From the NCBI GenBank assembly GCA_016935885.1, contig JAFGQA010000024.1, positions 1-7,225 of the forward strand: a stretch of 7,225 nt of DNA, written 5' to 3'. The notes under the pieces were generated by a model. It was not told the origin of the DNA. It ran no database searches and saw nothing but the letters and a program-made list of their open reading frames with translations. Made by a program: the position numbers and the translations under genes. Below are positions 1 through 5,975 of the stretch, piece after piece; position 1 is the first letter of the stretch, and each line of letters begins with the position of its first letter. This DNA is from Phycisphaerae bacterium (GTDB lineage: Bacteria; Planctomycetota; Phycisphaerae; UBA1845; UTPLA1).

Positions 1-7
1 CACAAAC

Positions 8-246
8 AGAACGACTGTACGCTCTGCCGAGAATCCTTTCTCGGCACCGGCTTCAGGACCGAGAAGGGATTCTCGGTCCAGCAATCGCAGTCGCGTTTCC
101 TGTGAAACGCGGTACTAGTACGGCGTTTCACGAGTAGAACGACTGTACGCTCTGCCGAGAATCCTCTCTCGGCACCGGCTCCAGGACCGAGAAGGGATTC
201 TCGGTCCAGCAATCGTAGTCGCGTTTCCTGTGAAACGCGGTACTAG
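8..246. repeat. Two-copy tandem repeat (128-bp period) with three hairpins per unit
   Basis: Copy 1 (8-118) and copy 2 (136-246) share 111 bp with only three substitutions (38/166, 53/181, 88/216), separated by a 17-nt linker. The first bases of the window resemble the end of that linker, so the array may continue upstream. Each unit holds three short-loop hairpins. In copy 1 these are 25-46 (9-bp stem, loop TCCT), 56-79 (10-bp stem, loop GGGA) and 92-111 (8-bp stem, loop CTGT). The first two share the stem CCGAGAA/TTCTCGG. Two of the three substitutions fall between hairpins; the third opens only the apical pair of the first hairpin in copy 2. No hairpin is followed by a T tract, so these are not ordinary terminators. 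No coding sense is seen. Function is unknown: possibly a REP-like repeat or a structured RNA. Confidence 0.9.
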
Positions 247-1389: not shown

Positions 1390-1561
1390 GTGTCGTCACG
1401 ATACGGTCGCAGCGAGGGGCCGTGACACATTCGGTGGCATTCGATTCTGGGGGAATCGGGCGGCTTGTCAGCCCCTGCGGTCTCTCCGGTGGGCGCATGG
1501 GGCAAGCACACTGGCAGGCAAGCTGCCAGTGGCACCGGGCCGTGTCGCCACGATACGGTCG
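1390..1561 (+). repeat. 20-bp direct repeats bracketing dispersed repeat A
   Basis: GTGTCGTCACGATACGGTCG at 1390-1409 recurs with one change (T to C at the seventh base) at 1542-1561. The right copy directly follows dispersed repeat A; the left copy ends 8 nt before it. With its flanks, the right copy can also fold as a hairpin (about 1540-1558). It may be a duplicated target or an outer module of the dispersed repeat. Confidence 0.75.
1418..1541 (+). repeat. Dispersed intergenic repeat, copy A
   Basis: About 124 bp that matches the reverse complement of 2724-2849 almost along its full length, for example in the blocks CATTCGATTCTGGG and GCGGTCTCTCCGGTGGGCGC. It contains the hairpin CACTGGCAG-GCAAG-CTGCCAGTG (1509-1531, 9-bp stem) and a degenerate second hairpin near 1457-1474 that is perfect in copy B. 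It has no coding capacity. Repeats of this style, with gctgccag-type hairpins and GTGGCACC borders, are in my experience common in planctomycete intergenic DNA; the family is not named here. Confidence 0.85.
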
Positions 1562-2541: not shown

Positions 2542-2723
2542 CCCGCCGCACTCACCCCGGAGATCGCAGAGGAAAGTTTGCTTCGTACGGCGTCGGTCAC
2601 GAGGCAGAGCCCCTCGTCGGACTCGTTCGGGTCAGACTTCAACCGGCTGCCCGCAAGCCGACCGATGCTGCGAGGCCTGACGGTGTCGTTGGTCGGGCCG
2701 GTGCCGATGTTGCGGTACTCGAT
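2542..2723. other. Non-coding spacer after the lipoprotein gene
   Basis: No family could be recognised in any frame. A minus-strand frame stays open across it (start at 2972, stop at 2538), but it runs through repeat B and lacks a ribosome site, so it is treated as chance. No U-tracted terminator was seen after the lipoprotein stop. Confidence 0.55.
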
Positions 2724-2849
2724 CGGGCGGGTGGCACTGGCAGCTTGCCTGCCAGTGTCCATGCCCCGTGCGCCCACCGGAGAGACCGCACGGGCGGACA
2801 AGCCGCCCGGTGGCACCCAGAATCGAATGCCGCCGGAAGTGTCACGGAC
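2724..2849 (-). repeat. Dispersed intergenic repeat, copy B (inverted relative to A)
   Basis: The reverse complement of copy A, with scattered substitutions and small length differences. It holds two clean hairpins: CACTGGCAG/CTGCCAGTG (2735-2757, 9-bp stem) and CGGGCGG/CCGCCCG (2791-2809, 7-bp stem, loop ACAAG). Copy A has the first intact and the second damaged, so B looks closer to the ancestral form. Its right edge abuts the broken IS110 reading frame. Confidence 0.85.
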
Positions 2850-2938
2850 CCACGGTGACCGGCCAACGAGACGCGAGCTTGGCTGACAACGCACATCGTG
2901 ATAGTGTTCTTGTGGAGGTCGCAGCCGATGTAGTTCAT
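2850..2938 (-). pseudogene. IS110-family transposase, 5' fragment only
   Basis: The minus-strand ATG at 2936-2938 begins MNYIGCDLHKNTITMCVV, the characteristic N-terminus of IS110-family (DEDD, RuvC-like) transposases, with the first catalytic Asp in GCDLHK at residue 7. A good ribosome site, AAGGAG, lies 5 nt upstream on the minus strand (plus-strand CTCCTT just after 2938). Only about 30 residues remain of a protein that is usually 300-400 long. The frame then runs into dispersed repeat B and ends without any later IS110 motif (second catalytic block, Tnp_20 domain). The rest of the transposase is absent from the window, so this is a dead remnant. Confidence 0.75.
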
Positions 2939-3344: not shown

Positions 3345-3352
3345 ATGCGTCC
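3327..3352 (+). promoter_or_regulatory. Possible ECF-type autoregulatory promoter
   Basis: GGAACC (3327-3332), 15 nt, then CGTCC (3348-3352) resembles the GGAAC ... CGTC pattern read by many ECF sigma factors, as expected if the sigma factor controls its own gene. The start would fall near 3360, on a second in-frame ATG (3360-3362), giving a leaderless message five codons shorter. The overlap with the annotated ATG at 3345 makes this uncertain. Confidence 0.25.
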
Positions 3353-4001
3353 AAATACGATGAAGGACCCGTCGGTGAACGCCCCGAGTGTCGCGATTCC
3401 TTTCGAGGACGCGGAGCTTGTGGAGCAGTGCCGACGTGGCGACAACGCCGCGTTCGGCCGGTTGGTGGTCAAGTATCAAGACCGTGTGTTCAACACGTGC
3501 TGGCGGATGTGCGGCAACCGGGCCGACGCCGAGGATCTGACGCAGGAGGCCTTCGTCAGGGCGTTGCAGTCGATCGATCGGTTTGGCGGTCGGTCGAAGT
3601 TCTATACGTGGGTGTTCCGCATTGCGGTGAATCTTGTGATCAGCGCCCGACGGATGAACAGACGCACAACGACATACTCGCTCGACGCATCATACGACGC
3701 GGCGAGGCATGGGGAATCGCACCCGGCCGGCCCGCAGTTAGCAGCGGGCGACGAGTCGCCCGATCAGCACGCGTCGACCCGGGAACATCAGGCGCTCGTG
3801 CTCGATGCCTTGGAGAGCCTGGACGAGGAGCAGCGCGCGGTTGTGATCCTGCGGGACTTGGAGTCGTTCGCGTATGATGAGATCGCCGAGATACTGGAGG
3901 TGCCACCGGGGACGGTGAAGTCGCGCCTGCATCGGGCTCGGCTGGCGTTGCGGCAGACATTGTCACCGATCCTGGCGAGCAGTTCTGCAGCCCGGCCATA
4001 G
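3345..4001 (+). CDS. ECF (sigma-24-type) RNA polymerase sigma factor
   Basis: A 218-residue group 4 sigma factor that would direct RNA polymerase to a dedicated set of promoters. Region 2 spans about residues 23-103 and includes the DAEDLTQEAFVRAL block (61-74), which contacts core enzyme, and RSKFYTWVFRIAVN (83-96), which reads and melts the -10. A hydrophilic linker (~104-148) replaces region 3. Region 4 (~150-208) contains SLDEEQRAVVILRDLE and a helix-turn-helix with IAEILEVPPGTVKSRLHRAR, which reads the -35. No extra C-terminal domain is present. ATG 3345 has no strong ribosome site; ATG 3360 (residue 6) is an equally plausible start and loses nothing conserved. The next gene encodes its likely anti-sigma factor, so activity is probably held off at the membrane until a signal arrives. 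The stop TAG (3999-4001) lies within the left ATAG flank of the element at 4002-4100. Confidence 0.95.
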   Translation: MRPNTMKDPSVNAPSVAIPFEDAELVEQCRRGDNAAFGRLVVKYQDRVFNTCWRMCGNRADAEDLTQEAFVRALQSIDRFGGRSKFYTWVFRIAVNLVISARRMNRRTTTYSLDASYDAARHGESHPAGPQLAAGDESPDQHASTREHQALVLDALESLDEEQRAVVILRDLESFAYDEIAEILEVPPGTVKSRLHRARLALRQTLSPILASSSAARP

Positions 4002-4100
4002 CAGCCCGTGGTAAAAGGGAAAACAGCGGTTCGGAAACGTCGTTCCTGACCGTGAAAACCACCGGCTTTGGCGCCGGTGCCACAGTTTTGCCACGGGCTG
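4002..4100. mobile_element. MITE-like 99-bp element between sigma and anti-sigma genes
   Basis: CAGCCCGTGGTAAAA (4002-4016) is the inverted repeat of TTTTGCCACGGGCTG (4086-4100): 15 positions with one mismatch that would be a U-G pair in RNA. ATAG stands directly outside both ends (3998-4001 and 4101-4104), like a target-site duplication. Inside are two further stems: CGGT/ACCG plus GGAA/TTCC (4027-4052) and CACCGGC/GCCGGTG (4060-4079). As RNA it would form a three-way junction. It encodes no protein and has no U tract after the stem. Without it and one ATAG copy, the two genes would be 17 nt apart. The repeat structure is certain; transposition is inferred. Confidence 0.6.
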
Positions 4101-4121
4101 ATAGCGGAGCGGTGGAGAGCC

Positions 4122-5975
4122 ATGGCGGACAAGAATGGACAATACGAGCAATTGACGGCCTACCTTGACGACGAGCTGTCGGAAGCGGAGCGGGCCGAGG
4201 TGGAGCGTCTGCTGGCCGAGGACGAGGGGGCACGAGTCCTGTTGGAGGAGCTGCGGCAGACGTCGGACCTGGTACGGAGTCTGCCGCGCGGTCATGCGCC
4301 GACCAATCTGCCCGAAAGCGTGCTGGTCCGGCTGGAGCGACAGGCGTTGTTGGGTGACGCGCCGAGGTGTTCCTCGGCCGGCAGGACGAGGTCGAGGCTT
4401 CTGGGCGGATTGGCCATCGCCGCATCCGTGGTCATCGTGATCACGGCGGGTTGGCTGCTGTTTCCGGGGTTGTCGGGGGTCAGGCAGGCGCGAGAGGTGG
4501 TAACGCTGGCGGACAAGGAGGCCGTGGGCGACTCGGAGGAGGGTGACCGTGACGAGGCCAGCCGGTCCATGTCACGCCGGCTTGGCACGGTGGGAGCCGG
4601 GGAAGCCCGCGATTTGAGTGCATCTGCCGACCCGCGAGTCCGTGGCGCCACCGCCACCAGTGAGAGGCTCCAGGCTACCAGGCAAGCGGCGGTGGAGTCG
4701 GTCGAGGAGAAGGAGGAGACCGCCTTGGCGCGAGCACCCGCACTGGTGGCCAAGAAGAAGCTTGAGCGCGGAACGGAAGGCGAAACGTCCGTGGGCGTGG
4801 GCGACGAAGCTGTCAACCGTCTGATGGCGTTGGCTTACGTGGGCTCGACGACGAAGGCCGATAGCGATCAGGCGACCGAGGAGCAGGAGATGCCCGGCAG
4901 GCGCGGCGGACAACGGGCGACGAAACGGCCCGATGGAATGGAAGGCCCGCCTGTTCCTCCGGTCAGCGATGATACGGCCGGTGCCGGCTTTGAGGGCTTG
5001 CTGGCCGCAAGGGTCCTGGCTAACAGCGACTTGCGACGCGCATCGGCTGACACGTTTGCGAATCGTGTTGTGGTAGAGACGGATGCGGAGACCGGTGACA
5101 AGATCCAGGCGCACATCGGCAGATTCATGGAATCGCACGGTATTCCAGATGTCCGGTCGCGGGATCTACCGGAACCGATCAAGGCGACACAACCGTTCTA
5201 CTTGGTGAGGGAGACTGGGCCGGACAAAGAACCGTCAGAATCGGTGCCGGCGGGCGAGCTGAGAGAAGGCAAGCAGTGCGGCGTCGATGTTCTGATGAAT
5301 GTATCCCGCACGCAGGCGGCGAGCCTGATCACCGGAATGGAGAAGATCGCGCGCCAAGACGAAGCGACCGTCGCCTGGACGGCGAATGACGTCCGAGTGA
5401 CGGACGAGCATCCGGCGATGGACGTGGTCCGGCGTGTCGTGCGCGCAGACAAGCGTCTTGAACCGGTCTTGCCTCCGCCGGACAGGGGCGCCGTGCCCGC
5501 CCCCGCGGACAAGGCAGCGGAGGCTGGCGGTCTCGCCAAGGCAGGCGATGACATTGGCGAGAAGGGCGAACGCGGCCATGGACGTGCCAAGGGATCGGAG
5601 CGGGAGGCATTGGGCGCCGAGGGGCGCGCCACCGGGCCGCCTTTCGTTGGCGGGCCGACGCAGATGAGGGCCGACGAGGTCGTGGCGCTGGTCATCTCGC
5701 TGCGCAGGGTCCGGACGGATGAACGGTTTCCACCTGGGAGTCCAAACGTCACAACGCGCGCGGCCAGCCCGCGTGGTTCCGCGGACGATCAGAAACGCGC
5801 AGGGGTGGCGGTGGCTGGCCCGCAACCTGCACCTCCCAAGGCCCCAGCCGCATCTCAGCCCACGAGCCAAGGCGGCCGGCGCGGCATGGCCGGCGCGGGC
5901 CCGACCACGCAGGATGCTCGGGAGCGACCACTGCCTGACCGTCGCGGCTCTGACGAGGGGAGCGCCGGTGGCTAA
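4122..5975 (+). CDS. Membrane-anchored anti-sigma factor with long exported region
   Basis: A 617-residue protein that probably binds the adjacent sigma factor at the inner face of the membrane and releases it on an envelope signal. Residues ~1-65 are an acidic helical N-terminal domain (YEQLTAYLDDELSEAERAEV ...) typical of anti-sigma N-termini, but with no His or Cys, so the zinc-binding HX3CX2C motif of ZAS proteins is absent. Residues ~93-115 form one transmembrane helix (LLGGLAIAASVVIVITAGWL). The remainder is exported. It is mostly low-complexity and charged, rich in Ala, Gly, Glu and Pro, with a more ordered part at ~314-430 showing two beta-alpha segments (NRVVVETDAETGDKIQAHIG and CGVDVLMNVSRTQAASLITG), and a Pro/Gly/Ser-rich tail. 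ATG 4122 is chosen for the GGTGGAG site at 4111-4117; the frame is open further upstream only inside the inserted element. It overlaps rsgA by 8 nt. The pairing with the sigma factor is inferred from position. Confidence 0.85.
   Translation: MADKNGQYEQLTAYLDDELSEAERAEVERLLAEDEGARVLLEELRQTSDLVRSLPRGHAPTNLPESVLVRLERQALLGDAPRCSSAGRTRSRLLGGLAIAASVVIVITAGWLLFPGLSGVRQAREVVTLADKEAVGDSEEGDRDEASRSMSRRLGTVGAGEARDLSASADPRVRGATATSERLQATRQAAVESVEEKEETALARAPALVAKKKLERGTEGETSVGVGDEAVNRLMALAYVGSTTKADSDQATEEQEMPGRRGGQRATKRPDGMEGPPVPPVSDDTAGAGFEGLLAARVLANSDLRRASADTFANRVVVETDAETGDKIQAHIGRFMESHGIPDVRSRDLPEPIKATQPFYLVRETGPDKEPSESVPAGELREGKQCGVDVLMNVSRTQAASLITGMEKIARQDEATVAWTANDVRVTDEHPAMDVVRRVVRADKRLEPVLPPPDRGAVPAPADKAAEAGGLAKAGDDIGEKGERGHGRAKGSEREALGAEGRATGPPFVGGPTQMRADEVVALVISLRRVRTDERFPPGSPNVTTRAASPRGSADDQKRAGVAVAGPQPAPPKAPAASQPTSQGGRRGMAGAGPTTQDARERPLPDRRGSDEGSAGG

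What the first reader, a model, noticed from the sequence alone, without database searches (positions are those of the whole stretch)
3998..4104. MITE-like insertion precisely between an ECF sigma gene and its anti-sigma gene
Seen directly: 15-bp terminal inverted repeats (4002-4016 / 4086-4100, one mismatch) with ATAG directly outside each end. The left ATAG contains the sigma stop codon. Removing 4002-4104 leaves the stop followed after 17 nt by the anti-sigma ATG, with its GGTGGAG ribosome site: an ordinary operon junction. The site reconstruction plus the duplication point to a small non-autonomous element. It may uncouple translation of the sigma factor from that of its inhibitor.
Basis: partly seen in the sequence, partly recalled or inferred. 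Interest (0 to 1): 0.75.

Follow-up and report, generated by a model that had tools for sequence, protein, structure and literature searches.

The report
Small jumping hairpin splits sigma/anti-sigma pair
A 99-base piece of transposon-like DNA, of a family with many copies in related planctomycete bacteria, has landed exactly between a sigma-factor gene and the gene for its likely inhibitor, leaving both whole but pushing them apart; it is a new family of a well-known kind of mobile DNA, and its effect on gene expression is untested.

Summary
Observation confirmed; the MITE reading is supported. Window 4002-4100 has 15-bp inverted ends (one mismatch) flanked by ATAG. Relatives are dispersed repeats: 20 stretches in four genomes and 47 matches in G267 (40 of 343 candidates scored; some are pieces of one copy), the closest genome found. 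Of 22 paired-end G267 copies, 11 carry an exact 4-bp duplication centred on TA; 0 of 20,000 flank shuffles reach 11. In G267 the same gene block has an empty junction, sigma TGA overlapping anti-sigma ATG. In 58 evaluated relatives no element end lies in the junction. Pairing across 20 copies shows no more covariation than shuffles, against a conserved regulatory RNA. No transposase with these ends was found, and the window's own genome is not held. Likely effect, inferred only: a hairpin spacer without terminator that loosens translational coupling and may invite RNase III. Four of seven other long junction spacers tested hold unrelated dispersed repeats; preference for this junction is not shown.

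The parts
3345..4001 (+). ECF-type sigma factor gene, stop TAG at 3999-4001
   Evidence: ORF list; Pfam Sigma70_r2, Sigma70_r4_2
3998..4001 (.). left copy of the 4-bp target duplication, ATAG, containing the sigma stop
   Evidence: sequence; duplication size and TA centre from other copies
4002..4100 (+). 99-bp non-autonomous palindromic element (MITE)
   Evidence: near-full-length relatives mostly at 80-92% identity in G267, G001, G002, one longer copy at 70%
4002..4016 (+). left terminal inverted repeat CAGCCCGTGGTAAAA
4086..4100 (-). right terminal inverted repeat (CAGCCCGTGGCAAAA on the minus strand)
4026..4053 (+). first inner hairpin (predicted)
   Evidence: minimum-energy fold; no covariation support
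4060..4079 (+). second inner hairpin CACCGGC...GCCGGTG (predicted)
   Evidence: best-kept helix among 20 copies (97.9% of cells paired) but no two-sided change
4101..4104 (.). right copy of the target duplication, ATAG
4111..4117 (+). likely ribosome-binding site GGTGGAG of the anti-sigma gene
   Evidence: sequence, by inspection
4122..5975 (+). putative anti-sigma factor gene (zinc-finger-like N-terminus)
   Evidence: ORF list; zf-HC2 just below cut-off; homologues next to sigma genes in 58 of 60 loci examined

Best explanation
4002-4100 is a copy of a miniature inverted-repeat transposable element. It was inserted by a transposase acting in trans that recognises ends like CAGCCCGTGG(C/T)AAAA and makes a 4-base duplication at targets centred on TA (CTAG, ATAG, TTAG, CTAT and the like). 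Here the target was ATAG, whose last three bases are the sigma stop codon, so duplication left the sigma gene, the anti-sigma start and its ribosome site unchanged. Shown: dispersed copies in relatives, 4-bp duplication, empty syntenic site in G267. Inferred: cut-and-paste by a DDE-type transposase. The likely consequence, inferred and untested, is that the shared mRNA carries a 99-nt hairpin and 103 extra nt between sigma stop and anti-sigma ribosome site; ribosomes ending sigma translation can no longer re-initiate directly on the anti-sigma gene, and the double-stranded arm may invite RNase III cleavage, lowering or uncoupling inhibitor synthesis relative to sigma. By the scan used it is neither an intrinsic terminator nor a sigma-70-type promoter. 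The confidence given is for the identity and the insertion; for the effect I would give about 0.5.
For: Dispersed copies: 20 stretches holding both ends in genome contigs, 16 in one planctomycete MAG (SZAS-6), 3 in two Zod_Metabat planctomycete MAGs, 1 in an acidobacterial MAG; 22 copies, all with different flanks. In G267 47 matches with 40 of 343 candidates scored. The same ends bound elements of different length and core: about 47, 98 and 138 bp in G267, 92 and 268 bp in the acidobacterial MAG, as expected if the ends are what is mobilised. Duplication: 11 of 22 paired-end G267 copies exact at 4 bp, shuffle mean 2.96, maximum 9, none of 20,000 as high. Empty syntenic junction in G267; of 58 evaluated relatives 25 overlap and 40 have a gap of at most 20 nt. 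No covariation beyond shuffles among 20 copies; 132 of 188 differences from consensus are transitions, as in decaying copies. No terminator or promoter found in 3700-4400.
Against: No genome is held for the window, so no second copy in the same genome could be shown. G267 is a distant relative (sigma 61%, anti-sigma 55% in the tblastn pieces; 37% over residues 4-584), so it shows absence, not the exact pre-insertion bases. No autonomous partner was found. Half of the G267 copies (11 of 22) lack an exact duplication. In SZAS-6 the signal is weak (6 of 19 rows exact; 34 of 2000 shuffles as high) and 4 of 16 clean copies have inverted flanks. In G001 and G002 the short end pattern was no commoner than its reversed control (9 against 31; 19 against 47), so copies are few there. 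The functional consequence has no data behind it.
Confidence: 0.93

Rival explanations
1. A native regulatory RNA or attenuator of the sigma/anti-sigma operon, built into the junction and kept by selection.
For: Stable fold, z = -3.0. 93.1% of cells in the consensus structure pair, against 33.5-49.9% when partners are slid by 1-3 columns, and the covariation score is 0.145 against 0.051-0.074; the tool warns that a structure derived from the same sequences beats slid versions for that reason alone.
Against: No element end in the junction of the 58 evaluated loci; many dispersed copies elsewhere; pairing and covariation equal to shuffled values, and fewer two-sided changes (2 pairs) than in five of six slid versions; no Rfam match in the window at gathering threshold.
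Confidence: 0.03
2. A REP/REPIN-type palindrome spread by a RAYT tyrosine transposase rather than by a DDE transposase.
For: Palindromic and abundant; planctomycetes are reported to hold REPs (PMC3733652, abstract and passages); four SZAS-6 copies have inverted flanks instead of direct duplications.
Against: An exact 4-bp direct duplication centred on TA in most of the 11 exact among 22 G267 copies; from recalled knowledge this marks DDE-type and not Y1 (RAYT) insertion. 15-bp ends with varying cores fit a MITE. RAYT genes were not searched.
Confidence: 0.06
3. The same mobile element, but without regulatory consequence: a neutral passenger at a permissive site.
For: Both genes and the anti-sigma ribosome site are intact; spacers of 36-251 nt occur in 17 of 58 relatives and one of 24 nt, and several of the longest hold dispersed repeats.
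Against: In 25 of 58 relatives the genes overlap, the closest one included, so tight linkage is common. This rival concerns the effect, not the identity, and its odds are on that question alone.
Confidence: 0.45

Closest known systems
Chunjie MITE of Geobacter uraniireducens (Chen et al. 2008; seen only as a passage and a reference title in PMC10969869)
   Different: Chunjie is 178-235 bp; its ends and target were not compared with these.
Correia elements (NEMIS) of Neisseria (passages of PMC10969869)
   Same: MITE lying in transcripts; RNase III cleavage at its terminal inverted repeats is reported.
   Different: Their TA target and typical size are recalled and differ or were not compared; processing is not shown here.
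ERIC elements (passage of PMC10969869)
   Same: Insertion at the 3' end of Yersinia genes is reported to affect levels of the transcripts that contain them.
   Different: Other host group; no sequence comparison made.
GTAG/CGTC-tagged REPs (PMC3733652, abstract and passages)
   Same: Abundant intergenic palindromes, reported also from Planctomycetes.
   Different: REPs are 20-40 bp with unpaired tags, GTAG ones tied to RAYTs; here mostly 98-138 bp with 15-bp ends and a 4-bp duplication.

Membership tests
MITE | short, no transposase gene (size limit of a few hundred bp recalled) | tested here: met
   99 bp; family members of 47-268 bp
MITE | terminal inverted repeats | tested here: met
   15 bp, one mismatch
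MITE | target site duplication of fixed length | tested here: met
   4 bp, 11 of 22 exact in G267, 0 of 20,000 shuffles as high; weaker in SZAS-6, 6 of 19 rows, 34 of 2000 shuffles as high
MITE | multiple dispersed copies in the host genome | tested here: inconclusive
   own genome not held; met in relatives G267, G001, G002
MITE | empty site in a relative | tested here: met
   G267 syntenic junction; distant, so absence is shown, not the exact pre-insertion bases
MITE | related autonomous element with the same ends (helpful, not strictly required) | tested here: inconclusive
   none found by three transposase families in 3-5 draft genomes or by pairing ends in fetched loci; other families and most of the genomes' sequence were not examined
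derivative of the IS701-type (DDE_5) element found in G267 | same terminal repeats | tested here: not met
   the element at G267:C308 has ends TACTACAACGCTAAGA between CTAA repeats, read by eye
REP/REPIN | RAYT gene flanked by the palindromes | not tested
   RAYT genes not searched
Rfam RNA family | score over a gathering threshold | tested here: not met
   0 matches in the window
intrinsic terminator | G+C stem followed by a run of T | tested here: not met
   0 found in 3700-4400

The most novel reading that the evidence does not exclude
The sigma/anti-sigma junction in Planctomycetota is a recurrent landing site for small palindromic mobile elements that reset the ratio of sigma to its inhibitor: the window's element, and unrelated dispersed repeats in four of seven other long spacers tested (G143, G214, G134, G140), would be independent events of regulatory tuning by mobile hairpins that break an overlapping, translationally coupled junction.
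Probability: 0.12. Interest if true: 0.65.

Novelty: new member of a known kind. Interest (0 to 1): 0.36.

Why it matters
It defines a MITE family of planctomycetes by its ends, its 4-bp TA-centred duplication and several cores, and gives a clean natural case of a mobile hairpin dropped into a two-gene switch without damage to either gene. The balance of an ECF sigma factor and its inhibitor sets how sensitive such a switch is, so an insertion that changes only the spacer is a ready-made test of how mobile DNA may tune regulation. The survey suggests that such spacers are colonised more than once.

Tried and rejected
Own-genome search: not possible. Viral contigs: 0 matches to the two-ended pattern. 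Plasmid collection with sigma gene plus element: 1 record, a 67-base match within the sigma gene, Nocardia. Autonomous partner: PF13546 gave three places in 5 genomes; one (G267:C308) is a separate element with other ends, standing next to the left part of a 138-bp-type copy, its right side being cut off by the contig end; the other two have no such ends in their loci. PF01609 was searched in 3 genomes (5 places) and PF05598 in 5 (1 place, in G004); none of their loci holds a pair of these ends. Pairs of ends 0.15-3.5 kb apart in the fetched loci bound two separate copies with ordinary genes between (glutamine synthetase-like in L130, phospholipase D-like in L017, named by eye), a 268-bp element, or stretches not examined further. 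An exact-end scan of G003 (66 hits, 0 in the reversed control) showed no inward-facing pair further apart than about 110 bases. A short-end scan of five genomes: 126 against 35 in the control for G267, 155 against 22 for G003, 27 against 9 for G004, but 19 against 47 for G002 and 9 against 31 for G001 (listing truncated). Native RNA: rejected. Terminator and promoter: none. Literature searches, listings only unless said elsewhere: planctomycete plus MITE 7 papers; IS701 plus YTAR 0; MITE with ECF sigma terms 56 papers, 10 listed, none with a title on this subject; MITE plus operon terms 3; the end sequences as text 239 papers, the 15 listed unrelated by title; planctomycete ECF classification 7; Chunjie 9, 5 listed. 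I did not find this family in print in these searches. The likeness of the target consensus to IS5/IS701-type elements is recalled and comes from no call.

Dropped rows: one of the 23 G267 rows (a 251-bp mispaired span of L090) was left out. In SZAS-6 three of 19 rows are mispaired spans (209-299 bp); its shuffle figures include them; the copy L006 was not counted because its flank is too short. The 60 loci are the 30 best anti-sigma matches of each of two order searches (133 of 161 and 98 of 114 genomes matched); two (L048, L075) could not be evaluated; starts were chosen by script and some gaps (for example L035, L078, L089) may be miscalled. In one search seven of the eight spacers of at least 90 nt were tested; L035 was not. 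In one search 20 copies were aligned; partial copies and the longer variants L117 and L129 were left out, and a few rows with degenerate ends include flanking letters.

Full report
What is there. The window carries an ECF-type sigma gene (3345-4001), a putative anti-sigma gene (4122-5975) and an RsgA-type GTPase gene after it. Between the first two lies a 99-bp palindromic element, 4002-4100, with 15-bp inverted ends (one mismatch) and ATAG on both sides. The finding's coordinates and letters are right. On its own the arm pair is only moderately surprising: 8 of 100 shuffles of the window hold at least one inverted 15-mer of that quality and spacing; the window holds five, this one and four in the repeat block at 1-246.

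It is a dispersed repeat. A scan of genome contigs for both ends 54-84 bases apart gave 20 stretches: 16 from the planctomycete MAG SZAS-6, 2 from a Sedimentisphaerales MAG, 1 from a Phycisphaerae MAG and 1 from an acidobacterial MAG, 22 copies in all with different flanks. The Sedimentisphaerales and Phycisphaerae copies share the window's core at 90-92% identity; the whole-element query finds nothing in SZAS-6 or the acidobacterial MAG, whose cores differ. In the order of G002, 6 of 114 genomes matched, but only G002 and G267 with near-full-length copies; the other four had short matches at E of 1e-4 or so. In the order of G001, 1 of 161 matched, G001 itself. G267 alone gave 47 matches with 40 of 343 candidates scored; some are two pieces of one copy.

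It moves with its ends. G267 has the same ends on elements of about 47, 98 and 138 bp, the acidobacterial MAG on 92 and 268 bp, SZAS-6 mostly on 98 bp. In 22 paired-end G267 copies 11 have an exact 4-bp direct repeat, 8 of them in the 15 copies whose left flank is not the palindrome CTAG; flank shuffles give 2.96 on average, 9 at most, in 20,000. The flanking bases centre on TA: T at position 2 in 40 of 44 and A at position 3 in 40 of 44. In SZAS-6 the signal is weaker (6 of 19 rows, 34 of 2000 shuffles as high), and 4 of 16 clean copies have inverted flanks of 4 to 8 bases, which I cannot explain.

The empty junction. The best anti-sigma match among the 275 genomes searched with it is in G267. 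There the sigma, anti-sigma and an RsgA-like frame (recognised by eye) stand in the same order, and the sigma TGA overlaps the anti-sigma ATG as ATGA. The sigma C-terminus is of similar length in both (LSPILASSSAARP in the window, LSPILGKALLE in G267), so the insertion did not obviously truncate it. Across 58 evaluated loci the median gap is 4 nt; 25 overlap, 40 are at most 20 nt, 8 are at least 90 nt. Allowing 2 mismatches one element-end-like hit was found in these loci (L079 at 1884), allowing 3 a scatter of single hits, none of them in a junction. The 17-nt gap left after taking out 4002-4104 falls in the common range.

Not a conserved RNA. On 20 aligned copies the consensus structure has 29 pairs; 93.1% of cells pair, as in shuffles (93.1), and 2 pairs show a two-sided change against 2.2 in shuffles. 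Partners slid by 1-3 columns pair less (33.5-49.9%) and score lower, as expected for a structure taken from the same consensus. Of 188 differences from the consensus 132 are transitions. This fits decaying mobile copies. No Rfam match.

How it most likely acts. Shown: it adds 103 bases between an intact stop and an intact ribosome site, and the transcript is predicted to fold strongly. No terminator-like or promoter-like site was found in 3700-4400. Inferred: loss of re-initiation-type coupling, which overlap in the closest and in many other relatives suggests as a common state; and possible RNase III processing, for which Correia elements are a precedent (passages of PMC10969869). I hold an effect about as likely as a neutral passenger.

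Partner. The strongest DDE_5 (PF13546) match in G267 belongs to an element with other ends, TACTACAACGCTAAGA, between CTAA repeats. On its left stands the left part of a 138-bp-type copy; the contig ends right after the second CTAA, so that it is nested in that copy is likely but not seen in full. No transposase gene was found between the MITE's ends. The mobilising enzyme is unknown; that its target recalls IS5 and IS701 elements is from memory.

A wider pattern. Seven long spacers from the same junction in other genomes were joined into one query and searched in their seven genomes. Matches, self match included: G143 45 (40 of 220 candidates scored), G214 71 (40 of 352), G134 20, G140 10 (40 of 52), G232 7, G223 3, G146 1; the listing was truncated. 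In G143, G214, G134 and G140 the listed matches fall, nearly all, on that genome's own spacer, so these four spacers hold dispersed repeats (in G134 mainly a stretch of about 32 bases). G146 had only itself; in G223 and G232 one further short match to the own spacer is listed. The spacers were picked because they are long, and intergenic space in such genomes may be rich in repeats (the window alone has two more families), so no preference for this junction is shown.

Verdict. A real element, ordinary in kind, in an interesting place: a new MITE family with a testable but untested effect.

Noticed in passing
window 1-118 and 129-246: Two close direct copies (95% alike) of a palindrome-rich repeat with CCGAGAA...TTCTCGG stems.
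   Followed up: no
window 1410-1542 and 2724-2857: Another repeat in inverted orientation (86 nt at 91% and 42 nt at 86%); by eye a similar stretch lies beside the element copy at L017:2702-2799.
   Followed up: no
window 2639-2938 (minus): A short ORF begins MNYIGCDLHKNTITMCVV, recalled as IS110-transposase-like, then runs into the repeat above; it may be a transposase remnant. Pfam gave no match.
   Followed up: partly
L146 (G267:C308): An IS701-type (DDE_5) element with ends TACTACAACGCTAAGA and CTAA repeats stands in, or next to, a 138-bp-type copy of the element family; the contig ends at its right side.
   Followed up: partly
L001, L010, L014, L018:614-709 (SZAS-6): Element copies whose flanks are inverted repeats (4 to 8 bases) instead of direct duplications, as if inserted at the centre of palindromes.
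   Followed up: no
L013/L141 (acidobacterial MAG): The same 15-bp ends with TTAG and TTAA duplications on unrelated 92- and 268-bp elements in a MAG of another phylum: lateral spread, or a mis-binned contig.
   Followed up: no
L033, L037, L041, L082 junctions: Unrelated dispersed repeats lie in long sigma/anti-sigma spacers of other genomes.
   Followed up: partly
L017:2702-2799 (G002): An element copy lies about 150 bases upstream of a frame that looks, by eye, like another sigma-70-family factor.
   Followed up: no
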